NCBI GenBank assembly: GCA_024741835.1
Contig: JAENRP010000156.1
Coordinates: 1 to 20,470, forward strand
Reading direction: 5' to 3'
DNA length: 20,470 nucleotides
From: Diplocarpon mali
Lineage: Eukaryota; Ascomycota; Leotiomycetes; Helotiales; Drepanopezizaceae
Shown here: positions 1,051-20,470 of the stretch, piece after piece
Position numbering within the stretch: the first letter of the stretch is position 1
Layout of the letters: each line of letters begins with the position of its first letter
The notes under the pieces: model-generated
Told to the model about the DNA's origin: nothing
Databases searched by the model: none
What the model saw: the letters and a program-made list of their open reading frames with translations, nothing else
Made by a program: the position numbers and the translations under genes

Positions 1051-1073
1051 ACTTGCAGTCCTAGCCTATAAGT
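1051..1073. repeat. 23-bp palindrome copy in ORF A
   Basis: Begins ACTTGCAGTCC and ends GCCTATAAGT. It is in the codon phase of ORF A, reading TCSPSLQV with TAA for Q. It lies about 14 residues after a VLIK block; the ORF B copy at 4991 lies a similar distance after the matching VFIK block, so the two appear to be at the same ancestral site. Confidence 0.85.
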
Positions 1074-1935
1074 CAATTTTATTAGAAAGCAAGTCTTAAA
1101 TTATCAAATCCTACTAATCGGATAAGGGCTAGCTTTTAAAAGCCTTAATAGGTAGGTCGGCTCTTAATCGAATATAAAACTCATTCTATTTATGAAAAAG
1201 ATAAGTCGATAGACTTCCTAAGCACTCGGCTTAAAATCTCAACTAGCTTGTATAACTGCAAAAATGAAGTAAAAAGAGATCTTATAGCCTATTACTAATA
1301 ATAGTAACCCTATTATAGTAATAATAAAACAAGGGCACCTTCTTAAAATGCGCTTAAATAAACTTTATAGAATTAAAGGCTTTATAGCCTTTTGCAATAA
1401 CTATATAGCTATTTGCGATAAGAATACTTTAGAAAATAAGACTCGAATCTCTGATCTTATCTTTTCAATCTTTACTCTAAAGTAACCTTTAATGCCTTAA
1501 TAGATTAATATAAGTAGAACTATTGCACCTTTTAAAGCAGCTTTTCATCTTAAGAACTATAGCAGCCTCTTTAAAGCTATTATTAGTTGGCGCTTTTAAA
1601 TAGATCCTTTTATCGTAACTAAAGTATAGGAGTTGTTCCTTCTTAATAAAGATAAATTAAAAATCTACCTTATAGAATATAATTAAAAACTCTTTAACGC
1701 CCTTATTAAGGCTTAGACGAATGTTACAAATACTAAGTCGCTTCTTTATAGACTTAAGTCTTAAGGATAGCGCGATAAAGTAAATGCTATCTAAGAGCCT
1801 AATATACTAATTAATAAAGGCATTATTATAAGAAAATTCAGAAAAGAGATAAACTAAGACGCTAGTATAGTATTAGACCCTGATTTAGGAATTAATCTCC
1901 TATTTTTACCCTTAAGCTTAAAAATACTAAGACTG

Positions 1936-1958
1936 ACCTGCGAGCCCAGCCCGCGAGT
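1936..1958. repeat. 23-bp palindrome copy in ORF A, GC-rich
   Basis: Begins ACCTGCGAGCC and ends CCCGCGAGT. It is one of the least decayed copies, although the flanking DNA is very AT-rich. In ORF A phase it reads TCEPSPRV. It matches the ORF B copy at 5813: both follow a KIL-x-x segment near the C-terminus. Confidence 0.85.
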
Positions 1959-2091
1959 AAGGATAGACTTAGCTAGCTTAAGCTTATAAGATAATTCAAA
2001 TGAACCTTAGTTACCAAATCTAAGGGTACTAATAAAAGATCCTTTAAGAAAGGTCCTTAAAGTTAAGAAATCGCTAAGAAATAAGAACTAA

Positions 2092-2740
2092 TATAAGAGA
2101 AGAAGACTTTAAAGTAACGATAGAACTAACAATTAAGTTAACTCGATCTAAAGAATTATAATCTATCCCTTTTAAAAACCATTTAAAGAGATTGCAAATT
2201 AGATATTGAATTTTTTTTAAAATTATCTACTTTTTATATATCTACATCTCTTTATTCTTAACCTATTATTCTATTCTATATATATTCTTTATTTACTTTG
2301 CTCTTTATATAATTTATTCTTTAATTATTCCCTTTATATACAACTTTCTAATGCTTACCTTTAAAATATCGTCCTTACCTTTAATAATAGTCATTTACCA
2401 ATTATAGGTCCTTATATACGTTATACCCTACTTTTATTCCTACTTCCAGCCTTTTTATACCTACTTTTTCTTTATGCACTAGTACGATTCCATCTCTATA
2501 AATAAACCTTTCCTTACACTACGATCATACTTTTTTTTACCTTTTCTATAATCCTACTAAACCCTAGCACTAGCAACACTACTACTACTATCTTCTATTA
2601 TCAATTCTTTCCTAGTACAAGCTTACCGTCTTATTAATCTGCTTTAAATAAGCTTTTACAAGTTCTATTATCCTATTCCTAATAAATAATTCATTATAGC
2701 ACTATTAAGCTTAAGTAAAAAGGCCATACCTAAGAAAAAT
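2092..2740. other. Spacer between ORF A and ORF B
   Basis: No coding frame could be followed. The stretch is AT-rich and pyrimidine-biased on the + strand, with runs such as ACTACTACTA near 2578-2590. It may hold the 3' region of the A unit and the promoter of B, but no specific site can be supported. Confidence 0.5.
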
Positions 2741-3583
2741 ATGTCAGTTATTGCCTTAGGCAGCTAGTTAATAAATACCGCTAGCAATAAACTAATGCTA
2801 GAAGGTGGCTTTTTATAGAATGGAAAAGCTTTAAGATTAGTAAAAGATATTATAACTACTTATAAAACGTTAAGTGAAATAGAGCAATAAGTATTCCTAA
2901 ATTCGTCTATTAAAGTATTAAACCACAGAATTTCTACTATTAAAGAAGGATTTTTAAAGTTTAACGATTTTCTTAAGAAAGAGCTTAAGATTAAGGGAAT
3001 CGATTGGGAGAAGTTTTTATAAGAATATTAAAGGTATGCTAATTCAATTGATTTATTTTAGAAGAATTAAGATAAGAAAAATAAGTGTATAAAAAGACTA
3101 ATACAATTTATAAACAGAATATGTAGAACGCTCTTTCGAAGCCACTTTATAAATAATATTATAGCTAATAATACTCTGCAGGGACTTAGTAAGATTTTTA
3201 AAATATACTAACCTATAGTAAGAGTGATATAGGTATTAAATCATTTCACTATATAAGAAGGAATGAAAAAGCTATAAGGAAATAACATTAGAAGTAGGAA
3301 ATTTATAGGGTTCTTAAGTACTATTATACACTCTACTATTTAGATTATAAAAGACGATCCCTTGTAATATGATAATTTTATACTCTTTAATTAGACTATT
3401 TTAAATACCCTCGGCCTATAATAGTCATAATATAGTCTACTTATAGTAAGGGAGAAGATAGTCTATCTAATTAAGTATATTATAAACTACTTTAATAATA
3501 AGACGGAAAGATAGGAGTTTATTATACCTGCTACTTAGAAAATGCTACTACTCTTAGTAGATTCAACTAACGAGTTAAATTTA

Positions 3584-3606
3584 ACTTATAGGCCTAGCCT
3601 ATAAGT
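3584..3606. repeat. 23-bp palindrome copy in ORF B
   Basis: Begins ACTTATAGGCC and ends GCCTATAAGT, so both arms have decayed in the same way and the hairpin is nearly perfect. In ORF B phase it reads TYRPSLQV (TAA for Q). Confidence 0.88.
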
Positions 3607-3760
3607 AGAAGCGCTATATAATAAAGATACCCTTAAGTATAAGTTGCCTATAATATCTTATATATAAATAATAGACTACCCCGACCGCTAATTATCTAAG
3701 TTAGACAACTTTGATTCCCTATCTTCCGAAATCCCTTGAATACCTATAGTAATAAAATTG

Positions 3761-3783
3761 ACTTGCAAGCCCGGTCTATAGGT
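3761..3783. repeat. 23-bp palindrome copy in ORF B
   Basis: Begins ACTTGCAAGCC and ends GTCTATAGGT. In ORF B phase it reads TCKPGLQV (TAG for Q). It lies 177 nt (59 codons) after the previous copy. Confidence 0.85.
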
Positions 3784-4990
3784 CGATATACGTAATATTA
3801 TTAATTTAGATAGTAATTTAATAGATAAAGAGAATAACCCTATTATTAATGTATTAGAAATTTTTAATAAAACTAAAAAGGATATATCCGATATTGTACA
3901 GACTTTGCTTAAAGACTTGCAAAGGTTTATTTTGAAATTTTATAAGTCTATAATAAAGCATTTAAAAAAGGAAGACTAAGAAGAAGTTTTATTAGTATAG
4001 GAAGGGATAGCAAGAGCTATTAAATAGATTATAAAGCTTTAAGAAGATGGATTTTCTACTAATAATATTATATAGTTTTTCATTAAGTATAAAAAGCTAA
4101 AGGGTGATTACTATATTCTTAAAGAAAAATCAGATAATAGTATAACAACTATCTTTATAAAGTGCTATAAAGTCCCCTTTAATATTAAGATAATACTATA
4201 GCATGGCGATAGATTTAAGATTATAATGATATTAGAAATAAAGATACGATTAAGCAGATTTATAGTAGGAATTTCTAAAGATACTAATAATGAAAAATTT
4301 TATACTCTTTATAAAAGATAATATGCGTAGTACTATGGGTTAGCATTAATAGGCCTTAATAATAAAGATATATTATCTAACATTTATAAATTTTATATAG
4401 CTCCAGACCTGAAATTGTTCTTACTATATCCTGGAAATCATACTATTATAGCTACTAGTAATAGAATAGCGAATTAAGTTAAGAAGGATATATTGCTAGG
4501 CTTCTCCAAGTTTAAAGTAGCACCTAAAGCCCTTAAATTATTCTATGATATCGCTTAGACCCCGGCCTAATACAATGCTATACTAACTAATAATAGCTTA
4601 ATATCGCTTTATAGCAAAGGCTTCTTAAATATGCCTAAGTTGCTTAGCTATGCCTTTTTAAGCACTATACGTATATATAGTTATAGTAATTGTAAAAAGA
4701 ATTCATTTTTAATATTAGTATAAGAGGAGCTAGAAATATACTAATACTATTTCCGGACCTTAGATAAGAAGCTAAGCCCCCCTTTTGCCTTCTTTTATAA
4801 TATAACTTATAGCTTAATATAGTAGACTTTAAGGATGTACTATAGTCTATATCTTAGTGCTCTATTAACTTATTATAATTCTTTATATAAGCTAGTAGTA
4901 TATCCTAAGCTTATATAGTTTATAAGTATTGACTACTATTTGCGAATTGTTTTTATTAAAATTAATGCTAACTTGAGATTTATAAAGTTA

Positions 4991-5013
4991 ACTCTTAAGC
5001 CTAGCTCGTAGGT
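4991..5013. repeat. 23-bp palindrome copy in ORF B
   Basis: Begins ACTCTTAAGCC and ends GCTCGTAGGT. It reads TLKPSSQV in ORF B phase, at the position matching the ORF A copy at 1051. Confidence 0.85.
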
Positions 5014-5812
5014 CAATTCTCTTAATAGTAGAACTATTAACTATTATATAATTCCTACTATTAAATAATCGACTAAGGAATTTGCTATATAGGAAAAGTC
5101 TTATAAGTCATTTATACTTATATCCTATCGCTTTAAAAACTCTTAGTAGATCTTATTAAACCTAGTATAAAGCGCAGCTTAATAAAAAGAATTAAATATT
5201 AAGGATAGAATAATTTTAAAAGAGTATATTTCTAATAAGATTACTCCATTCTTTATATTTATAAGATAAGGCACTTTTATTAATCTGGATTCTGATAGAG
5301 AGCTTAAGAAGGGTAGTTTTCTTACTATTAGCAATAACTATATAAAAGTTATTGGTAATAACACACTTAAGAATAGAGCTGATTTAGAAGATTTCCTTAT
5401 TAACTCTATTAATATGAAAAAGCCTTAATTATCAAGATGGGGCATAGTCTATAAATCTTCTATAAGATTCTAAGCAATAATCAGAATAATAAAAGGTAGT
5501 CTATTATTAGAAGCCCTTATAGGCAAAAGATTATAAAACGATCTATTAGTAGTAATAACTATAAAAGATTTATTTACAAAAGACGTGTCTTAGCTAATAG
5601 CATATCTAAAGAAGTACAAATAAGAACTTTTTAAAGATTTTACCAATACTTAAAAGCTGGTTTAATAACTAAAGCTATAGTTATATAGCAATAAGTCTTA
5701 AATAAAGACTAAAGATATAGAAGATAATATCGAGGCTGATAATATGATTAATAAGACAATTCTATTTAAGAAGTATAGTATTAAGAAACCCTATGCAAAG
5801 ATACTTGATATG

Positions 5813-5835
5813 ACTCTTAGGCCTGGTTTGCAACT
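5813..5835. repeat. 23-bp palindrome copy in ORF B
   Basis: Begins ACTCTTAGGCC and ends GGTTTGCAACT. It reads TLRPGLQL, with Gln still encoded by CAA, so this copy shows the unmutated residue at the motif's Q position. It matches the ORF A copy at 1936. Confidence 0.85.
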
Positions 5836-5923
5836 TAATCTAGTAAAAGGCAAGACTAAGGAAGTAGTATCTATAGAATCTCCCGCCTCCCTTTCCTCTA
5901 TTATTAATAATTCTTTTAAGGAT

Positions 5924-5947
5924 AATAATAATAATAATAACAATAAC
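5924..5947 (+). repeat. AAT/AAC trinucleotide run (eight Asn codons) in ORF B
   Basis: Eight consecutive AAT or AAC codons in the ORF B frame, between a serine-rich stretch and the basic C-terminal tail. ORF A has no counterpart, so the run looks like local expansion. Confidence 0.9.
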
Positions 5948-6151
5948 GCTATTATATAAGTCTCTCTCCTTATTAGTAGAAGCTACTAAAGTATACTAGC
6001 ATTTACCTAAACTATTAAAGCTCCTATTATACTAAGACCTATCTTATCAAACACTAATAGCAATACTATAAGAAGAAGTGGTCGTTCGGCAAAGAGAGTA
6101 TTATCTAATAATAGTTCTTCCTATCCTTTAAAGAGAACTAAGGAAAACTAA

Positions 6152-6448
6152 TACCTAGGTTAATTCTATTTTAATTATTTTTACAATTCTATAGCTTATT
6201 TGTTTATTTTACTAGTTTCGTTTTCTAACTCCTAGGCCTGGCCTATAGGTAAAAAGCATATAAAAAAAAACTCTTCTTTTTTTCTTTTACCTTTAATAAT
6301 AATATAGTCCTAGTTTAGGCCTTTTAATATATTAGTTTTCTTATACTTAGGGTTTACTAGTAATTGATATACTATTACCTTAACCTATATTATTTTATAT
6401 TCTTTACTAATAGTAGTAAGGGCTACTACTTTTATTATTTAAGATATA
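6152..6448. other. Non-coding spacer downstream of ORF B
   Basis: AT-rich, with A and T homopolymers around 6257-6288. It holds one palindrome copy (6228) and no readable frame. It probably includes the 3' untranslated region of the B unit. Confidence 0.5.
6228..6250. repeat. 23-bp palindrome copy, apparently non-coding
   Basis: Begins ACTCCTAGGCC and ends GGCCTATAGGT. It lies about 75 bp beyond the ORF B stop. Confidence 0.85.
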
Positions 6449-6700
6449 TATAAAGACTTAAGATAGATAGGTCTTATAATAAATACTATATAATCGGCGC
6501 AGGATAGTAGGAGGATAAAAGGGCTATCTTTTATATATAGAGATAGCGCGCATTACTATAAGTACTAAATATATCTTATACTTAGGACTTATTCCTAATA
6601 TCTTATCTAAGAGAGCCTGCTTATAGTGCTTCCTCCTTTTGTTTTTAGGTCTTCCCTTAGGCCTATTCTTGTATTATCTCCCCTTTGTTTTATATTATTG
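6449..6700 (+). mobile_element. Gypsy-family LTR, forward, apparently solo
   Basis: About 252 bp, closely similar to the LTRs at 13563-13810 and 17930-18180 and to the reverse complement of 7472-7719. Shared landmarks are the GACYTRAGATRGATAGG start region, GCGCAGGATAG, a TATATATAG box near 6530-6540, AGAGAGCCTGCTTATAGTGC, and the end TGTTTTATATTA. It is not followed by the leader that normally comes next. It abuts the broken end of an inverted leader at 6701, which fixes the LTR 3' end. No target-site duplication was seen. Confidence 0.85.
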
Positions 6701-7471
6701 TTTTTAGTATTTTCTAATATTAATATTGAAAAAGTAGATAGTAGTCCTAAGTTATTTAAGGATGTCTTTTTATCTTCTTACTTATAGGCTAGGCCTAGGA
6801 GTAGAATTCCAGATTCTATTAAAAGTTTAATCTAAGTTTGCTAAGAGATTTTAAGTAAATGCTAAATAGCTAATAAGAGCGTTGCAACTAATTATAATAA
6901 AATAAGGTTTACCTAATTAAAGACTAATTTCTAAGATAAGGTTTATATTTAAGATTCTTCTTAGCCTTTAGGCCAATTCCTATTAGTCCTTAGAATAAAG
7001 GGGTCTTTAAAGACAATTCTAAGGCAATTTTTAAAGTTCTATTTAGCTAAGGCAGCTGAATTATTAGATTTAGATTTCTAAGGATTCTAAGGAGATACTT
7101 CCAATTAGAGTTTGCGCTTAATATTACTTAAGTACTTAAAACCACTGCTATTAAAGATTACTATTATAAGGTTTATCAAACTTTTTATACTAAAAAGCCG
7201 AAAATTCTAAGAATCTCGGAGTTAAGGAAGAAAATAGGGATTTTCAAAGCAGAGCCGAAAAGGGAAAATCTAAGGTTATTAATAGTTACTAAATAAAAAT
7301 CGATAGTTCTAAGTAACTAAGCGATTAAGGATAAGGGTTTTAGAGTTAATCAAAATGCTATAAGTATTTTAAAGACGTATTTTAAAGGCCAGTCTCTTAT
7401 CTGCGAACTAAGAGATTAATAAGGTTATATAAGGATAGAAATCTTAAGAAATCGGTCCTTGCGTAAGTTAT
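6701..7471 (-). mobile_element. Gypsy 5' leader fragment, inverted, truncated
   Basis: Its reverse complement matches the G1 leader 13811 to about 14590 throughout, including CGATTTCTTAAGATTTC next to the LTR, the ATAAGAGA block, TCTGGAATTC, the palindrome copy, and TAATATTAGAAAATACTAAAA, which in G1 is the first part of gag. The match stops at 6701, where the forward LTR begins. This is therefore the 5' part of a minus-strand gypsy copy whose gag-pol is missing. Confidence 0.85.
6780..6802. repeat. 23-bp palindrome copy in inverted leader
   Basis: Begins ACTTATAGGCT and ends GGCCTAGGAGT. It occupies the same site as the copies at 14480 (G1) and 18893 (G2), so insertion into the leader predates the spread of this gypsy family. 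Confidence 0.85.
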
Positions 7472-7719
7472 TAATATAAAATAAAAGGGAGATAATATAA
7501 GAATAGGCCTAAAGGAAGACTTAAAAACAAGAGGAGGAAGCATTATAAGCAGGCTCTCTTAAATAAGATATTAAGAATAAGTCCTAAGTATAGAGTATAT
7601 TTAATACTATAGCAATATGCGATATCTTTATATATAAAAGATGGTCCTTTTATCTTCCTACTATCCTACGCCGATTATGTAATATATATTACAAAACCTA
7701 TCTATCTTAGGTCTTTATA
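7472..7719 (-). mobile_element. Gypsy-family LTR, reverse orientation
   Basis: About 248 bp. Its reverse complement begins TATAAAGACCTAAGATAG and ends ATTTTATATTA, matching the other three LTR copies along the full length. In its own direction it is the 5' LTR of the truncated leader 7471-6701. With the forward LTR 6449-6700 it forms inverted repeats around a ~770-bp interior. Its outer end interrupts the 3' part of the copia relic. Confidence 0.85.
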
Positions 7720-7944
7720 TTAATTGATTGTTTTTAATTTAGAAAGATACTTAGGAATTGGATTAGCGCAAAAGGATAGTTATTATTTTCCTAACTGCAG
7801 GTCAATTAGAGTAAGGTCTAAGTAGGGGTATTAAGATAGGTGATATAGCTATCACTTTAATATATTATTATATAATCCTACTACTTAGTTAATAGGATAT
7901 TAATACATATATAGCTATAGGGAAGAAAGGGGTAACCTTCCTTC
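7720..7944. other. Probable eroded 3' part of copia pol (RNase H region), not readable
   Basis: This lies directly downstream (minus strand) of recognisable copia reverse transcriptase, where the rest of pol and RNase H would be expected. I could not follow a convincing frame or find RNase H motifs. It is cut by the LTR ending at 7719. Confidence 0.4.
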
Positions 7945-10900
7945 TTTAACTCTTACTAATATATCGACTATCGACCTTTAAAAGCCTCCTTTACCTATTG
8001 CGCCGACTCACTTAAGCTCAATATTTCCTTTGATTAGAGTACGCTTTGGCTTAAAGTTAAGAGTATAAGTAGAAAGTCCTATTCGGTCTAGGATCTTCTT
8101 AATATACTGCTCTTAATTTAACTAGAGTTCTTAAGTAGAGCAGTTCTTTATAATGCAGATGCTAAGGATCTTATAAATTCCCCTTAGATCTTTAGTATTA
8201 AAATGTTTCCGAATTATTATAAAGAACTAATTTAATTAAGTGATTATTTTCGCAGCTATAGTAATATCGTTAATATATAGTAGCAACTTGATTCTACGCT
8301 TAGTATAGGTAAATAGATAAGGGTTAGCTAGGCTTTAAACAAATCCTATTTCTATTAGAGTAGAGCTATATAAGAGGTTTTAATTATAAGCTGATTATTT
8401 AAGCTTATAAATACTGCAAAGTATATAAAGAGAGTGGCTAGCGTATATAGGAATACCGTTAGGTTAAGAGAGAAAAATCCGTTCTTTTATAATCGCTTTA
8501 ATAAATGTATTTTTAATATTGTACTATTTGCATTTAAGGTCTTTAGCAGCTACTATTACTATAAATATACAAAGGGTATCTATGCAAACTATTAACGTAA
8601 ATATATTAAAGTAGTCTTCTCTATACTATTAGGAGAAGCCCTTAGCTATAAGCCTTGCTTTATAACATTTTAAGGTCCTATCTATATATATCTTAATTAT
8701 AAAGACCCACTTTATTAATACTAGGTTTATATCCTTTGGTATTAGTTCCTCTATTTATATACTATTTATAATAAGAGAGCTTATCTCTTCTTAGATTGCC
8801 TTACTTTATACTACTCTATTCTCTAGATCGTTAATAGCTTTATTATACGTTTTTAAAAGAGAGATTTTCATTATCCCTTTAGCGGCTAGGAACGTATTAT
8901 CTTTATCAAAGCTCTATTAAAGTTCGAGCTTATAGATCCTATATACTATTATAGCCTAAATACGCTTAGACTTGCGTTTATCTAAGGTATCTTCTAATTC
9001 TAGGTTTCTATTCCTCTTTAAAGATATAGGTTTAGCTATAGGTTCCGTAGGCTTATTATCTAAGGAACCGCTTTCTAATAGTAGAGGCTTATTATTACTT
9101 ATACCTATTTTAAGAATATCCTTTACCTTAGGTACTTTAACTAAAGGGATAATAATATTAAAGTTATTTTATACTTTAAGTAGTTTGCGGATAATAGGAA
9201 TAGTCTATTCGGCCTTTAGGCGATTAGTAGGTTATCGATCAGCAGGTGCACTTAATATGCCTAAGCTAAGAGAAAGGGGTTATTAGTTCGGCTTAATAGT
9301 ATTACCATTAAGTAGTATACCTTGCGAATCTCTAAGTATATAAAGCTTTAAGGATAGCTCCCTCCTATTTTAAGATTTGTCGAACTCAACTATTAAGGAT
9401 ATAATTACTTGCCTTAGATCTAGTATATATACTATTTATTACTTTATTATTTATTTAATATACTTAATAAATATATATTCTCTACCTCAGTCTATTAGCT
9501 TCTTACTCTTTATACCTATAGGCTAAGACTTTAGGCTAATATAAGAGTAGTAGACGCTTTTAAAAATGCAGATATAGTCCAAGCTTAATTTCTATTCGAA
9601 ATATGCCTTATATAGCGATATTTAAGTGCTATTAACTATTAGTCTACTACTTATTCTATTTTATAAGTATATATCTGCTTTAATCGCAAGGTCTTAGAAT
9701 TCTAATAGTAAGTTAGTATCTTGCAATAGAGCGCGATAGTCAGTCTTTGCTTACTAGATGCTTCGCTTAATAATGCTATTCTAATAGGAACCTTTATATA
9801 TTATAATTAATTTGTAATAAACTCCTTATTTTACCTATTTATTAAGCTTTACCTTAATCTCTAATATATTATTAGACCTAATAGCTATTAGCTTTAATTA
9901 GGTCTAGCGTTCCTCTATCACTTTCTAAGCTCCAGCTTTTTTATAAGCTTAGATTTAGTCCTAGCGCAAATAGTCTATATCTATTAAGTAGAGTTATTTA
10001 CTATTTAAGAAAACCAATTATTTCCTTTAATTAAGGTTATAAATAATTTAATAGTATTAATAGATATTAGTACTAGTATTAAATCTTTCTATAGACTAAG
10101 CTTAATTTGCATTCGATTTTAAAGTTTTATTAGCTTGCAAATTCGATATATTAAGCGATCCTTTAGTACTTAAATCTTCTATTTTAAGGTTAAGACCTTA
10201 TATAAGCCTTTTAATTTCTTTAGCCTTAAATGCGCGAATCTTTTATATATTAGCTAATACTTTAATAAGCTTTCGGCTTTTAATAACTTTAATAGCCTAT
10301 TATCAATCGATGCTTTATTATTAGCGGTTAAAAAGGACTAATAATAGTAGTTTAAGGTTTTACCATTTTCCAATTATAAGCCTGGTTTAAGAGTCGTTTT
10401 TAATAAAACCGCAAGATCTACTTGCGGTCCTAGCTTAAGAGTCGATTTCCTAGAAATAGCAAGATCTACTTATAGTCCTAGCTTAAGAGTCGTCTTTGAT
10501 AAATTCGCGAATTTTACTTATAGTCTTAGCTTAAAAGTCATTTCTACAAATTTCACTTGCGATCCTAGCCTAAGAGTTATTATTAGTAAAATTGTAAAAT
10601 CCACTTATAATCTTAGCCTAAGAGTCATTTCTATTAAATTCACTTATAATCCTAGCTTAAGAGTTATCTTTAAAGATACTTTGCAATCTACTTATAGTTT
10701 TAGCTTAAAAGTCATTTTCGCGAATTTCACTTGCGATCCTAGCTTAAGAGTCTATCTATTCTCCTTATCCTTGCTTAATTATATTAGGGCAAAGAGTGTA
10801 CTTTCCTTAAAGGAATCTACTTATAGGTCTGGCCTAAGAGTCAATTTTTATAATATTACCTTTAAAATAATATAAAGTCTATCTTTGATTTTAACTTTAA

Positions 10901-11015: not shown

Positions 11016-11300
11016 TGTTACGGCCGCATCACGTGCATATCACGTGAACGGTTATATCACGTATCGAAGTCAAGTATACGCTAACGCTAAGGTAGCGAGG
11101 TGGCTAGATTACGTGCACGCTAGCGAAGCACCTGTACTTATTCTAGAGGAGCTTTACTAGAGACTCTCTCTTTTTCTTTATCTTTTCTTCTTAATTATAT
11201 AATATACCTCTTAAGGTAATATAGTTAGCGTTATTCGATTCTCGCCTTTTATACGCTTGAGAGTAAGTTATAATATAAGAAAAGATCAACTTAACCTCTG
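11016..11300 (+). mobile_element. 5' LTR of element E1 (right boundary approximate)
   Basis: Starts TGTTACGGCCGCATC, a typical LTR start, exactly where the copia coding frame on the other strand stops. It is clearly less AT-rich than its surroundings and carries repeated CACGTG boxes. A leader and gag-like frame follow on the + strand. The right end is uncertain because no second copy is in the window; it probably falls between about 11270 and 11330. The class of E1 (copia or gypsy) cannot be decided without its pol. Confidence 0.6.
11030..11115. promoter_or_regulatory. Cluster of CACGTG boxes in the E1 LTR
   Basis: CACGTG occurs at 11030-11035 and 11041-11046, with one-base variants CACGTA at 11058-11063 and TACGTG at 11110-11115. 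The first three are each preceded by AT (ATCACGT). CACGTG is the palindromic core bound by fungal bHLH regulators. Its position in the U3-like part of an LTR suggests an enhancer, by inference. Confidence 0.5.
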
Positions 11301-12120
11301 CTAAGAAGCTTAATATCTACCCCCTTTAGAATTATCACTTCGAACTGCCTTAAGCAATTCGATCTCTCGATCTTAATACTTCTACTACAAACTGCCTTAA
11401 GCAACTTATATATAGCGCTTAGATCTTATTAATCTAGTTTTTAAAGAAAGCTAAGTAATAACCTTTGAATATAAGATCAGCTCGTTTTCTTAATTAATCT
11501 ACTCTATTTTACAAATGGAAATTCACCTTTAATTTCAATTTAAAAAAAAAAAATCATTTACTATGCCCTTGCTTTGCTAGCATAGGCTGCTGCCTAGAGT
11601 AGTATAATAACTTTTCTCTTTTCAACTCTCTCCTTCCTTTATAAATACTCTATACCACTCTTTTTCATCGACCTTATACTCGTTGATAATATACTTATTG
11701 ACAACTCTTCTTATACTCTTCAAAGCCCTTTACTCCTTCCTTCGAAATACTTAGGTACGAAACTAAGGGACCTATACCTATATATATACATAGAGACTTG
11801 GTCAGCCTTAGTGGGTTATATTATACTATTGGAGACTAGGTCAACTTTAGTAGAATAATAAGCTTTAGATCCCCGAACCCTACTTCCCTAGATTTGCACT
11901 ATATCCTTAGGCAACCTTATTATAACTCCTAATTAGTAAAGAGATATGATCTTAAAGTAAAACCTTCTTTCTTAAGATTTATAAACCTACGATACCTTAA
12001 TATATACTTTACTAAAAGGCTTTAAGAATATATATAGCTCTGCTTATACTGATCTTCCCCCTTTTGAATAGGTTACTATTTAGCATTAGGTCCCTTTAGA
12101 TTAAACCAGATAATATAGAG
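11301..12120. other. Leader region of element E1
   Basis: No convincing coding frame. Small repeats are visible: AACTGCCTTAAGCAA occurs exactly at 11343-11357 and 11389-11403, and a 39-bp unit starting GAGACTTGGTCAGCCTTAGT at 11793 is repeated, diverged, at 11832. There is an A-run around 11544-11553. It lies between the LTR and the gag-like frame, as expected for an untranslated leader. Confidence 0.5.
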
Positions 12121-12198
12121 AAAGTTAATACTTATGACTTCTAATCTTATGCCACGCCACTTAGGAGAAGTGAAAGGTTAACCGTACCTCTACTACTA

Positions 12199-12280
12199 GG
12201 CCTTACTGCTATTAGTTCTACGGGCCTTACTGCCACTAGTTCTATTAGTTCTATAGGCCTTACTGCTAACCCTAGTCCTA
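12199..12280 (+). repeat. Short imperfect tandem repeat in E1 gag N-terminus
   Basis: GGCCTTACTGC recurs at 12199, 12223 and 12256 (steps of 24 and 33 nt, both multiples of three). It encodes repeated GLTA blocks spaced by Ser/Thr-rich residues. Confidence 0.7.
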
Positions 12281-12336
12281 GAGATATTCCCTCTCCTAAG
12301 CCTACTTAGGAAGAAACCTCCCTTAGTACCAATTTC

Positions 12337-12359
12337 ACTCCTAGTCCTAGACTGTAAGT
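12337..12359. repeat. 23-bp palindrome copy in E1 gag
   Basis: Begins ACTCCTAGTCC and ends AGACTGTAAGT. In the gag frame it reads TPSPRLQV (TAA for Q), the same phase as the copies in the other families. Confidence 0.8.
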
Positions 12360-13562
12360 GGATTTTTAAAATACTCCCCTTTTATCGATTAAAATTAAGA
12401 AAGAACTGATATCTACTCTTACTATATTAGCCCCTCTCTTCTTAACTGCCTAATAGGCCGAAATCGCGAATCTTATTAGCGCTACTATAGCTACCGCTTT
12501 TTAAAATAATACTATTGCCCCTTTTTCCTTAAGTGCTAGCCCTTAAAACACTTAGTCCTTTACCGCCGACTTACTGCCTCCTTTAGACTACTACCTCTTA
12601 ATTATCTGACCTTTAGTCCTAGCTATTGACCCCTATTAAATTAAGTACCTTTAAACCTATTTTAGCAACTATTAAGGCGAAATTACTTATAACGCTTAAA
12701 AGATAGTTATAAAGGTGTTTATTTAAAAGTACTTAAGCAACTTCACTTTAAAAGAGGACTAGATTATTACCTACTTTAAGTATATAATAGGTAAAGCTTA
12801 GAACTTGATCTTATAATATATAGATCCTATCTTTACTAATAAGTTCATATACGCTGCTAACGTCTTTAGGATTTTAGATTAAAGGTTCTTTAATTATAAT
12901 TACATTTAATCCGCTAAGCTTAAATATAATAGGCTAACTATAGGTTTAATATTATATAATAAGTTCTAATTCAAGTTTATTACCCTTATAATAGCTAATA
13001 AGATTGATTAGTCTCGCTAGTTCGATAATATTTATAAAAAGGTCTCTTTAGCTTTAAAGAACGACCTTTAAATAGAAAAGTATAAAATAAATAATAATTA
13101 TATTACTTTAGATAAGTTCTTAGCTATTGCGGATTATAAGGCCTATAATATTAAATAAAAAGAAGCTTATAACGCTTGATAAGTCGCTCCTACTATTGCG
13201 TTCTCCCTTTTAAAGGACCGCATCCTTAGTATATTAAAAAGGGAGTTATAAAGACCTATAGCTATAGCTACTTCCCTAGCTCCTTATACTTATTCCCCTT
13301 TGCCGGCGGCCTACTAAGAAAGGTCTGCTAGCCTAAAGCCGTCGTCTAGTCTTTGCTATAACTGCAAAGCCTTTAGTTACTATATAATAAATTGCCTTAA
13401 GCTAAAGAAGTAAGGCGAGTTTATAGTAGCTAAAGTTGAGATAGAAAACGACCTACTATTAAGAAACTGCTAAGCTATGGCAAAGACTCTTACTATAGTA
13501 TAAGTTATAATTTGTAAAAAGACTTAGATTTTGATTCCTACTTATTAATAGGCAGCCACTAG

Positions 13563-13810
13563 TATGGAGACCTGAGATGGATAGGTCTTATGATATATAT
13601 TATATAATTAGCGCAGGATAGAGGGAGGATAAAAGGGCCATCTTCTATATATAGAGATAGCGTATGTTACTATAGTATTAAATATACCTTATACTTAGGA
13701 CTTGTTCCTAATATTATATCTAAGAGAGCCTGCTTATAGTGCTTCCTCCTCTTGTTTTTAGGTCTTCCCTTAGGCCTATTCTTATATTATCTCCCTTCTG
13801 TTTTATATTA
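13563..13810 (+). mobile_element. 5' LTR of gypsy element G1
   Basis: 248 bp from TATGGAGACCTGAGATGG to TGTTTTATATTA, matching the LTR at 17930-18180 and the inverted pair at 6449-7719. The original first bases are probably TG (TGTAGAGACC in the better-preserved copy), here decayed to TA. It contains a TATATATAG box at 13646-13654 and the conserved GAGCCTGCTTATAGTGC block. It interrupts the E1 gag frame. RIP damage is heavier than in the G2 LTR. Confidence 0.87.
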
Positions 13811-14555
13811 GTAACTTATGCAAAGACCGATTTCTTAAGATTTCTATTCTTATACAACCTTATTAATCTCTTAGTTCGCAAATAAGAGACTGGCCTTTGA
13901 AATATATCTTTAAAACACTTATAGTATTTTGATTAATTCTAAAACCCTTATCCTTAATCGCTTAGTTACTTAGAACTATTGATTTTCGTTTAGCAACTAT
14001 TAATAACCTTAGATTTTCCCTTTTCGGCTCTGCTTTGAAAACCCTTATTTTCTTCTTTAACTCTGAGATTCTTAGAATTTTCGGCTTTTCAGTATAAAAA
14101 GTTTGATAAACCCTATAATAGCAATCTCTAATAGTAGTAGTTTTGAGTACTTAAGTAATACTAAGCGCAAACTCTAATTGGAAGTATCTTTATAGAATCC
14201 TTAGAAATCCGAATCTAATAATTCAATTGCCTTAGCTAAATAGAACTCTAAAAATTGCCTTGGAATTATCTCTAGAGACCCCTTTATTCTAAGGACTAAT
14301 AGGAATTGGCTTAAAGGCTAAGAAGAATCTTAGATATAAACCTTATCTTAGAAATTGGTCCTTAATTAGGTAAACCTTATCTTATTGCGATTAGTTATAA
14401 CGCTCCTATTAGCTATTTAATACCTACTTAGAATCTCTTAGCAAACTTGGATTAAACTTTTAATAGAATCTGGAATTCCACTCTTAGGCCTGGCCTATGA
14501 GTAGGAGGATAAAAAGATATCTTTAAATAACTTAAGACTACTACCTACTTTTTTA
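13811..14555 (+). mobile_element. G1 leader between LTR and gag
   Basis: Begins GTAACTTATGCAAAGACCG, where a primer-binding site is expected; no clear tRNA match could be assigned. The region matches the G2 leader (18181-19019) and the reverse complement of 6701-7471. It has a single version of the ~54-bp unit duplicated in G2. It carries a palindrome copy at 14480. No ORF is supported. Confidence 0.75.
14480..14502. repeat. 23-bp palindrome copy in G1 leader
   Basis: Begins ACTCTTAGGCC and ends GGCCTATGAGT, with arms still largely complementary. It occupies the same leader site as 6780 (inverted) and 18893. Confidence 0.87.
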
Positions 14556-15488
14556 ATATTAATATTAGAAAATACTAAAAATAATAATAATTTTAAACTT
14601 TTTACTAATCCTTTATTTGAATCTTTTTAAACTTGTCTTAGTTACTTTAAGATTGACTCGGATTTTAAATATTCTTTAAACCCTTTTGAATTTCGAAGTA
14701 CTCCTTTTAGCAATTAATCTTGTAATATTAAAGCTTCCCCTTTGCCCCTTATGAATTCTATCAACTTAGACAGTTAGTATAAAATGATAATAGCCGCATT
14801 TAAGGCTATTACTAGTCACTTTCCCCTCTTTAGTTCCCTTAGCGCTCCTTACTTTATAGGCGCTAATATTACTGATTTCCTTAAGTAATATAAGGAAACT
14901 TATTACGATTTTGGTATTATATAAAAGGATATGATTTCTCGACTTCTTTACTACTATAATTATATAAGTAAGGATATTATTAAATCCCTCCTTAAATGGA
15001 AAACTTATAGTTTATAAGAACTCTTTATTAAGGCCTTTAAATCTGAATTTCGCGAATTTAATAAATAGTAGATTTGCGATACCCTGGCTTTCTTAAAGGA
15101 ATTTGTTCTAATCACTTATACTCTTAAGGAACTTAAAAACTACTATCGGACTTTTACTTATATATCGAATACTTTAATCAGCTAGAAAATACTTAGTAAA
15201 GTTGAAAGAGGCTGCCTTTTCTTACTCAAATTACCCACTGGCCTTTGAAATAAGATTATTAAGCATTTTAAGATCGATAAGTAAGACCTTATAACCTTTG
15301 CCTTATTTAAGGAATTCTCGGCCTTTGCTTTGAAATCAGATCTTAATAAGAGAACTATTAATATTATAAAGTAGGAAAAAGCCCTTACTCCCTTTTATAC
15401 TAAAGACCTTAAGAGCTTGGTCCAAGAATACTCAAAGGCTCTGGAAGTTATAGAGGAAGTAAAGAAGAACCTAATAGTTATACCTTTT

Positions 15489-15511
15489 ACTTGCGGTCCT
15501 AACCTAGGAGT
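15489..15511. repeat. 23-bp palindrome copy in G1 gag
   Basis: Begins ACTTGCGGTCC and ends ACCTAGGAGT. It reads TCGPNLGV in the gag frame, at the same gag site as the G2 copy at 19899. Confidence 0.87.
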
Positions 15512-17404
15512 AAGATCTAACCTTAGAATTAAGGAACTTAAGACCTAATTTGCAAAACTTTAAATTTAAAGCTTAGAAATTAGGATTAATAATCTCTTAT
15601 AGGAAAAATAGCATATTCCTTAGTTTGGTAATAGATAAAACTCAGCTACTATAAGCCAACTTAATAGTTCTTATTATTAAGCTCCTGCTTCTTATCATTT
15701 AGAATAACTAGCTAATATAAGAATGCAATAGCTGGCTAAAGAAGGAGGAATTGATCCTAACTAGCACTCTGCTAATATTAATGCTATAGGATACTAAGGA
15801 AACGGCAATAGAAGACGACTAACTTACAACTTTTGCAATAATAAAGAACCTAACTGCGCTTTATATAAGTATTGTAACAATTGCCCTCTTTTCCTTTATT
15901 TTATTAATACTAGGGTTATATATATTAACAAGTATGGGATGCTTTGTATTAGGGATCTTAGGCCAAAAGCTATCCCTATTAAAAAGCACTAGAATTGGTT
16001 ATAGTTATAGACTGTTCGAACAATAATATATAGTACGAAATAGGATAAGAATTTAGTCGAATAATAGCATATTATAAATATAAATGCTAAAATTCCAACT
16101 TATATATATATTAGTCCAATTAGCAACCTACCTAAGGGAGTTCTCAAGGACCTAGCTTCTGATTAAATAGCTATAGAAGTTAAAGGCATCTCTATCTTAG
16201 GATAGGTTAATAATAATATATCTACTAATATTAATACTACTTTTATATCTAGAAACCCTTGGAATACTTAGCGTCCTTCTAGATCTACCACTCCTTTAAT
16301 ACTAATAAAACTAGCTAAAGTCTAAAAATCAATACGTATAACTTAGGAATCTTAATATAGAGTTTAAATGCTAAAAGACATTTAATAATCTAGAACCGCA
16401 GTGGATAAGGATAAAGCTAATATAATAGACGAATTGATCAGAGATATAATAGATAAAGATGGCTTTAAGCTTAAAGATTAAGAAGTTAAAGTTATTGTAT
16501 AGACCCTTGACCTTAAGCGAAAGAGATAGATGTTAAAATGGGAGAAATTCGTTAATAAATATGCTAATTCAATTGTAATAGAGAAAGCTATAGAGAATGT
16601 TATAGCTTAGCAAATTAACCTTACGTTTAAAGACCTATTTAGTTTAACTAGACGCTTTAATAAAGTGCTAGGAAAGCATATCCTAATTGCCTTTAAAGAT
16701 TTGAATAATAATAAGGAAATGGAAATTATAATACGAAAGAACTTTAAGAAGTACCTAGCTTTAATCAAATGTCTTTAGATTGCAAAAGACGAAGGAACCT
16801 AGAGGTACTATAATATTATAATGATAGCTTTAATATCTTAGAATATTAATTGAAATTGTTTAGTAGTTATAATAAAAAGCCCTATTATTATTTGTTTTAT
16901 AAAAGAATTAATTAAAGCAAAGGCTCTAATCGATTATGATTTAAAAGTTAATATAATAACTAGAAAAGTGGCGGAAATAGCTTGATTAATAATCGTTAGC
17001 AATCGACTCCTTATTTATTCGACTGTCTTTAGATTGAAATACAATTTTAATAAATAGGTGAAAAACGTAAAGGTTAGAGTTAGAGGAATCATTAATTATA
17101 CTAACTTTCTAATAATAGAGAATTCTTTAAATGATATTCTTTTAGGAATGCCCTTTATTTTAAAATCTCAGCTAATATTTAACTATCTTAGAGATAGGCT
17201 TATAAAAGCTAGCCTTTAGAATACGGATCGATCTTTAGAAGGATAAATGGTTATTATAGGAGATATAGCCGAATTTTAAAATAAGGTTTTAGGAAACGAT
17301 TAGCTAGTATAAGGGCTAGGCTTAATGCTAATAAAGGAAGGCACCTAGCAAGGAGTTATAGTAAAAGAAAGGTGAGTTTGCCGATTTTAAATAATAGCGA
17401 TTTA

Positions 17405-17427
17405 ACTTGCGGTCTTAAACTAGGAGT
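17405..17427. repeat. 23-bp palindrome copy in G1 pol
   Basis: Begins ACTTGCGGTCT and ends AACTAGGAGT. It reads TCGLKLGV in the frame used after the shift near 17370. The flanks extend the hairpin: GATTTA before, TAAATC after. Confidence 0.8.
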
Positions 17428-17566
17428 TAAATCTAGAATTTTAAAAATTAGTGCAATCGGCGTTTTATCGGCTTAATAATTAAGAAAAAAGAAAAATAAG
17501 GTAGAGAAGAGAGTTCGTTTTATAAATTTTAATAATTTATTAATTATTTTAAAAAACTTAAAAACC

Positions 17567-17589
17567 ACTTATAAGCTAGACCTATAAGT
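17567..17589. repeat. 23-bp palindrome copy in G1 pol
   Basis: Begins ACTTATAAGCT and ends GACCTATAAGT. It reads TYKLDLQV (TAA for Q), 162 nt (54 codons) after the previous copy and in the same frame. Confidence 0.8.
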
Positions 17590-17929
17590 GAAAAATAATA
17601 AAATTATTAATAATATTTCTATTTATACACTTTAAATTAATAACTTAGAAAATCTTTTATTTATTTTTAAAAAGGAAAATTCGGACCGTTTTATAGGATT
17701 TGATAAAAAAGGAAAGAAGTAGAGAAGTATAGTATTAGCTAATATTCGAACTATATATAAAAGTAAGGCTGATAAAGTACAACCGGTAGATTAAGGAATC
17801 TCTAATGGCTTAAAGCCTAAAGGACTAGACGATTGGTTTAAATAAGACGAGAAGCTTCGACCTCTAAAGCCGGGTGGCAAATTCGATAAGTTTATTATAG
17901 GCAGATTTTCTAATAAACCTATCGGATAT

Positions 17930-18180
17930 TGTAGAGACCTGGAAGTGGAGGATCTCGTGACATAGGTCATATGGTCAGATGAGGACTAAGAAAGGGGTAT
18001 ATATAGGACTACTATTATACTTAGAGATAGCGCGCAATGCTAACTACCTATTCTACCCCTAACAAGTGATTTATCCTAGTTCTATCTTCGGAGAGCCCGC
18101 TTATAGTGCTTCCTCCCTCTTTATCTTTGGTCTTTACGTAGGCCTATTCTCAGGTGTTGTTCCTGCTTCCTCTTATATTA
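17930..18180 (+). mobile_element. 5' LTR of gypsy element G2 (younger copy)
   Basis: 251 bp from TGTAGAGACCTGGAAGTGG to CCTCTTATATTA. Same family as the LTRs at 6449, 7472 and 13563, but it keeps CpG- and CpA-containing words the others have lost (CTACGCAGGG just after the LTR, GGAGAGCCCGC). It splits the G1 pol frame within the segment before reverse transcriptase, so it is the left end of a nested insertion rather than the 3' LTR of G1. The G2 leader and gag that follow support this. Confidence 0.85.
17998..18007 (+). promoter_or_regulatory. TATA box of the G2 LTR
   Basis: TATATATAGG, preceded by a G-run, about 70 bp into the LTR. An equivalent TATATATAG box lies near the same place in the G1 LTR (13646). 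It is the likely core promoter of the element. Confidence 0.55.
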
Positions 18181-18293
18181 GTGATCTACGCAGGGACAAT
18201 TCCTTTGAGATTTCGTCTTCATACGACTTCTCCTCTTGATTCTCTTGGTTCGCAGATAAGAGATCAACCCTTCGAAAAACCCTCTTAAGACAA

Positions 18294-18401
18294 CAATCAC
18301 TCAGTTATTTAGAACTGTCAGTTGTCATTCCTCTATTGTCGACCTTGCAATCACTTAGTTATTTGGAACTGTCGATTGCTACTCTCTACTATCAATAGCC
18401 T
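18294..18401 (+). repeat. 54-bp tandem duplication in G2 leader
   Basis: Two diverged units start at CAATCAC 18294 and 18348. Each continues with a TAGTTATTTGGAACTGTC-like core. The G1 leader has only one unit (around 13965-14010). The units already differ by several transitions, so the duplication is not recent. Confidence 0.75.
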
Positions 18402-18892
18402 CAGATTTTCCCATTTCGGCCCTTATTCCGACTCTCCTACCTCTGATCCGATAAAGCTTGAATTGTCAGCTTATTAGTACGATTGTCGGATTCCCAGCCT
18501 TTCTAATACGAAGAAGTTTGATTAGCTATAATAGCTACTTTAAATAATAGCAGTTTCGAGTATTTATGCAATACTAAACAAAAGCTCTAATCGGGAGTGT
18601 CTCCTTAGCTTCCTTAAAAAGCTAAATCGGATACTTTAGCCGCCTCCACTCGATAGAACTCTAAAAACTGCCCCGGAATCGTCTCCGGAGACCCCTTTAT
18701 TCTAAGGACCAATAGGAATTGTCTTAAAAGCTAAGATGAATCTTTCTTAGAAACTTTATCTTAGAAATTAGTCTTTGATTTAATAAACCTTTTCTTACTG
18801 CTAGTGATTGTAGTACCTTTATTTATTGCTTTGTACCTACTAAAGAAGTCTTAGTAAAGTATAAATAAACTTTCTGCGGAAGCCGGATTTTC

Positions 18893-18915
18893 ACTCCTGG
18901 GCCAGGCCCGCGAGT
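18893..18915. repeat. 23-bp palindrome copy in G2 leader, well preserved
   Basis: Begins ACTCCTGGGCC, centre A, ends GGCCCGCGAGT. Flanking GATTTTC and GGGAATC extend the possible stem. Same leader site as 6780 and 14480, with far less decay, so it is close to the ancestral form at this locus. Confidence 0.9.
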
Positions 18916-18956
18916 GGGAATCTAAAAATGCAATTTTGTATAACTCGAGTTCTTTA

Positions 18957-19001
18957 CCTTCCCCTTCTACACCTTCTCCTTCGACACCTTCCCCTTCGAC
19001 A
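18957..19001 (+). repeat. Three 15-bp minisatellite units (PSPST in the gag frame)
   Basis: Three consecutive units of the type CCTTCNCCTTCNACA at 18957, 18972 and 18987. They read PSPST three times in the gag frame but lie before the likely start ATG at 19020. The matching G1 region lacks them. Confidence 0.85.
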
Positions 19002-19019
19002 ACTGCACCTACTTTCTCA

Positions 19020-20201
19020 ATGTCGACACTTGAAAATACTAAAAATATCAATTTTAAACCTCCTTCTGACCCTTTGCCCGAATCTTTTCAAGCTCGCCCT
19101 AGTCACTTTAAGATTGACTCAGATTCTGAAAACTCCTCAGAATACCTTAGGACCTGTATTCGACCTGACTCCCCTCCTATCGAAACGAATAAAGCAATAA
19201 TAGCCGCCTTTAAAGCTATCACTAATCATTTTCCCCTCCCTAGTTCCCTTAGCGCTCCTTATTTCACTAGAGCTAATATTACTAATTTCCTTAAACAATA
19301 CGAGGAGACTTATTATAATTTCGGCATTAGATATAATAAAATAATCAATCGACTTCCCCGCTACTATAACTAAACTAGCAAAGATATTATCAAATCTCTG
19401 CCTAAGTGGAAGCTTCGCGAGTCCTAGGAACTACTCGTTAAGGCTCTTAAAGCTGAATTTCGGGAATTTAATAGACAGCAGATTCGCGACACTCTGGCCT
19501 TTCTAAAGGAGTTTGTTCTTATTACTCGCACTCCTAAGGAACTCAAAAACTACTATCGGACCTTTACTTGAGTGTCGAATACCTTAATTGACTAGAAAAT
19601 ACTTAGCGAAGTTGAAAGAGGCCGCCTTTTCTTACTCGGATTACCCACTGGCCTTCGCAATAAGATCATTAAGAATTTCAGGATCGATGAATAAGACCCT
19701 ATAACCTTTGCCTCATTTGAGGAGTTCTCGGCCTTTGCTTTAAAATCAGATCTTAATAAAAGAACTATTAATGCTATAGAATAGGAAAAAGCCCCTACTC
19801 CCTCCTATACTAAAGACCTCAAGAGCTTGGTTTAAGAATACTCAAAGGCTCTAGAAGTTACAAAGGAGGCAAAGAGAAATCCAGTGGTAATTCCCTTTAC
19901 TCGCAGTCCCAGCCTAGGAGTGAAATCTGCCTTAAAAATCAAGGAACTTGAAGCCCAGTTTTCTAAACTCCGCATCTAACGTTTAAAAACCTCAATCGAA
20001 GGCCTTCTTTAGAAAACTTATCACGCCCCTTAGTTTGGAAATCGATAGGCTTTAAAAGGCAAAAACCAGCACGCGAACTCTAAATACCTAAATCCAGCTT
20101 CCCTTAAGTTGAATAAGCGAGTTGCTACCTTAGAAAGGCTTAATAAACGTCTATATTAAAGGAATTCCTAAATTGTCAATCGAATTTTATACAAAGCTTG
20201 A
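19020..20201 (+). pseudogene. Ty3/gypsy gag of G2, lightly mutated, C-terminus divergent
   Basis: Start ATG at 19020 (MSTLENTKNINFK); stop taken at TGA 20199. The gag domain is clear: NITNFLKQYEETYYNFG, INRLPRYYN, DIIKSLPKWK, LRDTLAFLKEF-like and RGRLFLLGLPTG blocks, as in fungal gypsy capsid proteins (the family motif is RRLPRYC; the last Cys is lost here). About ten in-frame stops are present: TAA 19371, several TAG where Gln is expected, and a TGA at about 19569. Damage is much lighter than in G1. The two gags match until about 20050, then diverge completely. G1 goes on to a Cys cluster and protease, whereas G2 has a short basic tail (LNKRVATLERLNKRLYQR). Gag forms the particle shell; this copy cannot make a full protein. 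Confidence 0.85.
19899..19921. repeat. 23-bp palindrome copy in G2 gag
   Basis: Begins ACTCGCAGTCC and ends GCCTAGGAGT. It reads TRSPSLGV in the gag frame, at the same site as 15489 in G1. Confidence 0.88.
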
Positions 20202-20323
20202 ATTTTCTTTAGCGAGGACGCCTCTTAAGTTAGTTAGGGCATATATGCTTAGGATTACTTGAAATTGTCTTCGAATTTTCCTTAAAATTGCGATTTAATA
20301 GCTTTAATAACTTCGAGCTTTTG

Positions 20324-20346
20324 ACTCGCAGTCCCGGACCAGGAGT
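20324..20346. repeat. 23-bp palindrome copy downstream of G2 gag
   Basis: Begins ACTCGCAGTCC and ends GGACCAGGAGT. In the locally open frame it would read TRSPGPGV, the usual phase, but coding status is unproven. Confidence 0.85.
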
Positions 20347-20447
20347 CGCATTACCAAAGGAGGAAAAAAGGAGTTTTTATTATTTTATACGTTTACTACC
20401 GCACCTCCCCCCTTCCCCCTCTCCCTCTATATATTTCTTTAAAATCC

Positions 20448-20470
20448 ACTCGCGGGCCCGACCCGCGAGT
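20448..20470. repeat. 23-bp palindrome, best-preserved copy
   Basis: ACTCGCGGGCC, centre C, then GACCCGCGAGT. The two 11-base arms are complementary except at one pair next to the centre. It contains no CpA or TpG, so it is not itself a preferred RIP target. It lies at the extreme end of the window, so its right flank is unseen. Confidence 0.92.

What the first reader, a model, noticed from the sequence alone, without database searches (positions are those of the whole stretch)
1051..20470. A 23-bp GC-rich palindrome dispersed 27 times across unrelated transposon families
The arm ACTCGCGGGCC, a centre base, and the arm GGCCCGCGAGT, in various states of decay, occur at 1051, 1936, 3584, 3761, 4991, 5813, 6228, 6780, ten sites in 10372-10841, 12337, 14480, 15489, 17405, 17567, 18893, 19899, 20324 and 20448. 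Hosts include the unknown A/B family, copia pol, E1 gag, gypsy gag and pol, and leaders. All copies are exactly 23 nt, and sequence outside the 23 nt is not shared between unrelated sites. A unit this short in unrelated hosts points to a mobile or templated mini-element rather than shared descent. No target-site duplication was obvious.
Basis: seen in the sequence. Interest (0 to 1): 0.93.

Follow-up and report, generated by a model that had tools for sequence, protein, structure and literature searches.

The report
Shared palindromic signal in fungal retrotransposons
Several unrelated families of jumping genes in one fungus-like genome carry the same short mirror-image DNA signal over and over, mostly in one reading frame, which suggests a shared recognition signal for which our searches found no earlier description.

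Summary
The palindromes are real. All 27 stand at the stated coordinates. A degenerate form occurs 5,169 times in the 49.4 Mb host genome, against 2 for the reversed pattern. Much of that number is retrotransposon amplification. But unrelated lineages carry it: two gypsy-type families, a copia family and an unassigned tandem array, at several unrelated positions. Three gypsy copies and a copia-bearing stretch in the same genome show none.

Three points change the finding. (1) The unit is longer than 23 nt: the dyad skips one base and continues, with pyrimidine/purine at ±13 in 1,787 of 1,791 exact sites. (2) Inside reading frames, 18 of 19 loci use one codon phase, outside the recognised domains. 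(3) Transversions fall almost only at five tolerant positions, and lone half-sites are no commoner than chance.

Independent mobility is not supported: 0 of 38 measured copies lack either of two sites, and 0 of 38 lack a third. Best reading: an in-frame palindromic cassette kept as a recognition site shared by retrotransposons. The binding protein is unknown.

The parts
1051..1073 (.). site s8, gypsy-type element Y, second ORF, phase ACT = codon
1936..1958 (.). site s9, element Y, second ORF, in phase
3584..3606 (.). site s10, element Y, second ORF, in phase; present in 38 of 38 measured copies
3761..3783 (.). site s11, element Y, second ORF, in phase; present in 38 of 38 measured copies
4991..5013 (.). 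site s12, element Y, second ORF, in phase
5813..5835 (.). site s13, element Y, second ORF, in phase
6228..6250 (.). site s14, element Y, near or after the end of the second ORF
6780..6802 (-). site s1 in an inverted 5' piece of element Y
10372..10841 (+). tandem array V: ten sites (10372, 10420, 10468, 10516, 10555, 10603, 10642, 10690, 10729, 10819), most at steps of 39 and 48 bp, in the one open frame
12337..12359 (.). site z1 of gypsy element Z, in phase with the least interrupted frame (modest margin)
14480..14502 (+). site s1, upstream of the gag frame of element Y (leader, inferred)
15489..15511 (+). site s2, gag frame of element Y, in phase
17405..17427 (+). site s3, stretch before the reverse transcriptase of element Y, in phase
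17567..17589 (+). site s4, stretch before the reverse transcriptase of element Y, in phase
18893..18915 (+). site s1 of relative Y', orthologous to 14480
19899..19921 (+). site s2 of relative Y', orthologous to 15489, in phase
20324..20346 (+). site p3' of Y', reading frame around it unclear

Best explanation
Each site is a 27-bp, perhaps 35-bp, imperfect dyad: an 11-bp arm, one free centre base, the mirrored arm, one free base on each side, then a pyrimidine/purine and an AT-rich tail. I read it as a recognition site for a dimeric DNA- (or RNA-) binding protein used in common by several unrelated LTR retrotransposon lineages. Shown: repeated occurrence in unrelated gypsy and copia lineages; position-specific constraint; no excess of lone half-sites; one codon phase at 18 of 19 in-frame loci; location outside the recognised domains; 45-bp tandem gain and loss at one position. 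Inferred: that family ancestors took it up as a ready-made in-frame cassette, which would explain the phase and the positions; that a protein binds it; and that this helps the element, for example against silencing as VANC motifs do in Arabidopsis VANDAL elements. Retrotransposition then copied the sites by the thousand, and RIP-like C-to-T mutation is eroding them. The binding protein is not identified; Y's second reading frame (about 7 kb) is a candidate only because it is large and unknown.
For: Unrelated hosts: Y has RNase H and integrase zinc domains, Z has RVT_1, RNase H and a weak integrase zinc match, W has RVT_2 and copia-type gag; gypsy copies L026, L022, L023 and the copia-bearing stretch L029 carry no site in the DNA held. 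Extended dyad: pyrimidine at -2 / purine at +2 in 56 of 56 flanks of 28 site groups and in 1,787 of 1,791 exact sites. Constraint: 7 deviations in 774 core cells over 43 site groups; 9 of 10 within-group transversion columns fall at positions 5, 9, 12, 15, 19. Lone half-sites: 49, three shuffles gave 53-69. Phase: 11 of 12 in Y, 3 of 3 in Z and 3 of 3 in W, 1 of 1 for array V: 18 of 19 loci, p about 1e-7 if phases were random; without the two weakest frame calls (s6, z1) 16 of 17, p about 8e-7. Not codon-driven: T3 in 41 and A21 in 40 of 43 groups although both are third codon positions, while 5 and 19, second and first positions, are free. Site s1, outside the frames, keeps the pattern in Y, Y' and a short LTR derivative.
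Against: No binding protein was found; the second ORF has no homologue at E 0.001 and no Pfam domain. A DNA-binding site alone predicts no codon phase. Within family Y the sites diverge as fast as the rest (19% against 16% in one pair; 20/17 and 19/16 in the other two), so recent copies show no constraint beyond a low transversion count. One site (s5) is out of phase. In the short derivative the s8 copy has lost much of the pattern. No empty site was seen, so uptake as a cassette is not shown. Symmetry at 9/15 is not kept (17 of 43 groups unequal). Only one genome and about 237 kb of it were read. The five tolerant positions were chosen from the same data that tested them.
Confidence: 0.42

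Rival explanations
1. A selfish palindromic coding insert, the nuclear counterpart of the palindromic coding elements reported from Rickettsia and Wolbachia. It entered retrotransposon ancestors many times, survived where it was in frame and in tolerant stretches, and has no function.
For: Same unit at unrelated positions, outside recognised domains and in one phase; the passages seen of PMC2996958 describe such elements as in-frame insertions at assorted positions, typically in non-structured segments. Z carries an extra stretch in the RNase H-integrase linker relative to site-free gypsies, of uncertain exact length.
Against: No empty site in 38 and 38 measured copies. In the DNA sampled it keeps to certain retrotransposons. 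Position-specific constraint, also at a site outside the frames.
Confidence: 0.27
2. A peptide signal: the usual reading (T-x-x-P-x-x-x-V) marks processing or flexible points between protein domains, and the DNA palindrome is a by-product.
For: 18 of 19 loci in one phase; sites lie between recognised domains in Y, Z and W; the second ORF of Y carries seven.
Against: Sites outside the frames have the same pattern. Silent third positions 3 and 21 are nearly invariant while other residues of the peptide vary. s5 is out of phase. Peptide selection does not produce dyad symmetry or the mirrored flanks.
Confidence: 0.13
3. An RNA (or cruciform) hairpin in the element's transcript, for example for dimerisation, packaging or translational pausing.
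For: Near-palindromic arms; 14 sites spread over 14.3 kb of element Y.
Against: Pairing is not kept: stem position 5/19 is a Watson-Crick pair in 6 of 43 groups and 9/15 in 26 of 43; genome-wide 1,489 of 1,791 exact sites cannot pair at 5/19, and the type with C-type arms on both sides is rare, 32 against 337 expected. No fold was computed.
Confidence: 0.06
4. Ordinary shared descent: one ancestral repeat copied with its host, nothing more.
For: Much of the 5,169 matches are copies of few elements; 61 Y pol copies were scored among 542 candidates.
Against: The 14 sites within element Y share the dyad but not their wider flanks, and gypsy and copia hosts are different superfamilies.
Confidence: 0.05

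Closest known systems
Palindromic coding elements: Rickettsia/Wolbachia palindromic elements and PARCELs (PMC2996958, abstract and passages seen)
   Same: Dyad-symmetric DNA read through inside unrelated reading frames, typically in unstructured segments, for PARCELs also in tandem arrays
   Different: Here a 27-35 bp unit rather than a 25-residue repeat, in nuclear LTR retrotransposons of a fungus-like genome, also outside frames, with position-specific constraint
VANC-binding motifs of Arabidopsis VANDAL transposons (PMC5735166, passages seen)
   Same: Short motif repeated many times within transposons, multiplied by tandem repeat gain and loss, also present in an unrelated transposon (AT9TSD1)
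   Different: Those motifs are 8-9 bp, not palindromic, mainly noncoding, and their binder is known; here none is
Mitochondrial GC clusters and double-hairpin elements of fungi (recalled, no call)
   Same: Short GC-rich palindromic elements in AT-rich DNA
   Different: Those are organellar; here the hosts are retrotransposons on contigs with nuclear-type genes, and no empty sites were found
MITEs / solo terminal inverted repeats (definition recalled)
   Same: Short inverted-repeat unit in many copies
   Different: No lone arm above chance, no sign of target duplication, no presence/absence between measured copies

Membership tests
Palindromic coding element (RPE/PARCEL-like) | Dyad-symmetric DNA inside reading frames of unrelated genes | tested here: met
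Palindromic coding element (RPE/PARCEL-like) | In-frame insertion demonstrated against an empty orthologue | tested here: inconclusive
   0 of 38 and 0 of 38 measured copies empty within families; linker comparison with distant relatives not exact
Palindromic coding element (RPE/PARCEL-like) | PARCEL 25-residue repeat unit | tested here: not met
   repeat steps here are 13, 15 and 16 codons
Transposon-borne binding motif (VANC type) | Same motif many times per element and multiplied by tandem repeats | tested here: met
   at z3 one unit in 14, two in 21, three in 3 of 38 copies
Transposon-borne binding motif (VANC type) | Binding protein encoded by the element | tested here: inconclusive
   second ORF of Y without homologue or domain; binding itself not testable here
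Transposon-borne binding motif (VANC type) | Loss of silencing marks at the motif | not testable with these tools
   needs ChIP or methylation data
MITE | Terminal inverted repeats separable from each other | tested here: not met
   49 lone arms against 53-69 in three shuffles
MITE | Target-site duplication and empty sites | tested here: not met
   flanks mirror-related (direct repeats were not scored separately); no empty sites at the three positions measured

The most novel reading that the evidence does not exclude
Gypsy and copia retrotransposons of one fungus-like genome share a 35-bp dyad, taken up as an in-frame cassette and kept about once per kilobase in the largest element, because a trans-acting protein (retrotransposon- or host-encoded) binds it and shields or licenses the elements: a counter-defence shared between unrelated transposons in a host with RIP-like mutation.
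Probability: 0.25. Interest if true: 0.92.

Novelty: new variant of a known kind. Interest (0 to 1): 0.76.

Why it matters
If right, unrelated retrotransposons share one cis-acting signal, and its protein partner would be a new handle on how transposons and fungal genome defence meet. It would also be a case of a palindromic coding cassette in retrotransposons; the one paper seen on such elements names bacteria, an archaeon and algae. The number of sites makes it testable by a single pull-down.

Tried and rejected
A fixed 23-nt element: rejected, the dyad extends. Hairpin selection: disfavoured on pairing counts. Terminal inverted repeats of a lost transposon: disfavoured, no lone arms above chance. 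tRNA and Rfam: nothing in the window. Independent mobility: no support. Peptide-only explanation: kept as a rival. Compensatory change between arms at 9/15: not supported, groups fall 20/12/6/5 in the four classes. Viral contigs: 0 matches to a form with 15 fixed bases. Organism: not named; named matches to one host gene include Aspergillus niger and Sclerotinia sclerotiorum (best 120 of 388 seen). Literature: searches listed no account of this motif; they cover open-licence papers only. Second ORF of Y: no homologue; in six frames of L028 the only Pfam family at E 0.01 is the integrase zinc domain; a re-scan up to E 1 gave one chance-level match.
Full report
What was checked. All 27 sites stand at the coordinates given. 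With the degenerate form ACTYNNRGKCCNRGMCYNNRAGT and up to two mismatches the window holds 40 two-strand matches at 22 distinct sites; shuffles give 0.05. The host genome has 49,369,952 bases in 676 contigs; with up to one mismatch it holds 5,169 forward and 5,174 reverse matches, against 2 and 2 for the reversed pattern. Exact core matches on contig C1 (560 kb) are listed at 3.7 kb, 292 kb and 400-523 kb only. Of 20 sampled 10-kb loci (chosen around known sites, so not a random sample) 4 had none: L025, L026, L029 and L036, among them the two richest in G+C (52% and 49%).

The unit. In the flanks of 28 site groups (15 of 43 left out: 13 tandem or orthologous groups, one strongly decayed, one cut by the window end), position -2 is a pyrimidine and its mirror a purine in 56 of 56 cases, position -1 is nearly free, and -3 to -6 lean to T, T/A, A, A/G. 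Genome-wide there are 1,791 exact cores, and 1,787 also fit the flanking pyrimidine and purine (counts weighted by element copy number). Thus the dyad is at least 27 bp and probably about 35. Lone half-sites with at most one mismatch number 49, while three shuffles gave 53, 54 and 69. In purine/pyrimidine code, which ignores C-to-T decay, 43 groups show 7 deviations in 774 core cells; positions 5, 9, 12, 15 and 19 are free, and 9 of 10 within-group transversion columns lie there (the five positions were picked from the same data). The arms are usually unequal at 5/19: 1,489 of 1,791 exact sites are mixed, 270 have G-type arms on both sides, 32 C-type on both against 337 expected if arms were independent. 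Hairpin pairing is therefore not what is kept.

Reading frame. Stop density, Pfam frames and alignment define the frames of Y (gag, pol, and a second frame of about 7 kb), Z and W. In Y, 11 of 12 in-frame loci read ACT as a codon; the exception, s5, lies between RNase H and integrase in another phase. Z gives 3 of 3, W 3 of 3, V 1 of 1. In all 18 of 19; if phases were random p is about 1e-7, or 3e-7 if two neighbouring W sites count as one. The frame calls of s6 and z1 rest on small stop differences; without them 16 of 17 remain, p about 8e-7. Sites avoid the recognised RT, RNase H, integrase and gag domains; the second frame of Y has no recognised domain to compare with. Sites outside frames, or of unclear frame, exist too: s1, s14, w4, v2a-c, p3', p4'. 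T3 (41 of 43 groups) and A21 (40 of 43) are silent third positions in the common phase yet nearly invariant, so the pattern is not set by the peptide.

History. Between copies of Y, sites differ as much as the rest (19% inside, 16% outside in one pair, similar in two others) and nearly only by transitions, as expected of RIP-like decay. s1 and s2 are shared by Y and Y'; s1 also by a short LTR derivative with about 67% flank identity, whose s8 copy has decayed. To look for empty sites I searched the genome with flanks joined across s10 and s11: of 40 scored matches (236 candidates) two were partial; the other 38 all contain both sites, with 46 (33 copies), 37 (3), 47 (1) or 43 (1) extra bases. 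For z3 (182 candidates, 40 scored) 38 copies could be measured: 14 have one unit, 21 two, 3 three, none zero; two unpaired pieces were dropped. The 45-bp unit grows and shrinks in tandem, but the position itself looks fixed.

Relatives. Four proteins in a 5.8-billion set match the Y pol piece at 38-44% identity, and seven more at 21-24%. In the alignment the four lack a recognisable counterpart of the palindrome peptides, but the linkers vary too much in length to read an insertion exactly. The second frame of Y has no relative and no domain.

Judgement. The repeat is not chance, not one inherited repeat, and not a 23-mer. The phase and the positions point to uptake as a read-through cassette; the position-specific constraint, the lack of lone half-sites and the shared use by unrelated elements point to a recognition site. 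I combine the two, with confidence 0.42, and keep a functionless palindromic coding insert as the main rival at 0.27. Shown are occurrence, extent, phase, tolerance, and presence in the copies measured; uptake, binding and benefit are inferred.

Literature. PMC2996958 (abstract and passages seen) describes palindromic coding repeats and refers to in-frame palindromic elements of Rickettsia and Wolbachia. PMC5735166 (passages seen) describes VANC motifs multiplied by tandem repeats and found also in an unrelated transposon. PMC5915480 (passages seen) mentions only the usual LTR-end palindrome. Other papers were seen in search listings only. Six searches listed no description of this motif.

Noticed in passing
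L028:2001-9200 (element Y): A second reading frame of about 7 kb (2,400 codons) follows pol in the gypsy element Y; transversions concentrate at third codon positions in its later part, yet it has no homologue or Pfam domain.
   Followed up: partly
L002 (C1:290609-293631): A short element with 239-nt direct repeats (85% identical) looks like an internally deleted relative of Y that keeps s1 and a decayed s8.
   Followed up: partly
z3 locus of gypsy Z, e.g. G000:C1:426089 and C1:516667: A 45-bp tandem repeat in the RNase H-integrase linker varies from one to three units among 38 measured copies.
   Followed up: yes
window and AT-rich loci: CpA is depleted to about 0.4-0.8 of expectation in the AT-rich stretches (0.4 in the window) and CpT is raised, a RIP-like signature; inside the palindromes CpG often reads TpA.
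   Followed up: partly
L022, L023, L026: Gypsy copies without any palindrome occur in the same genome; their G+C is 39-46%.
   Followed up: partly
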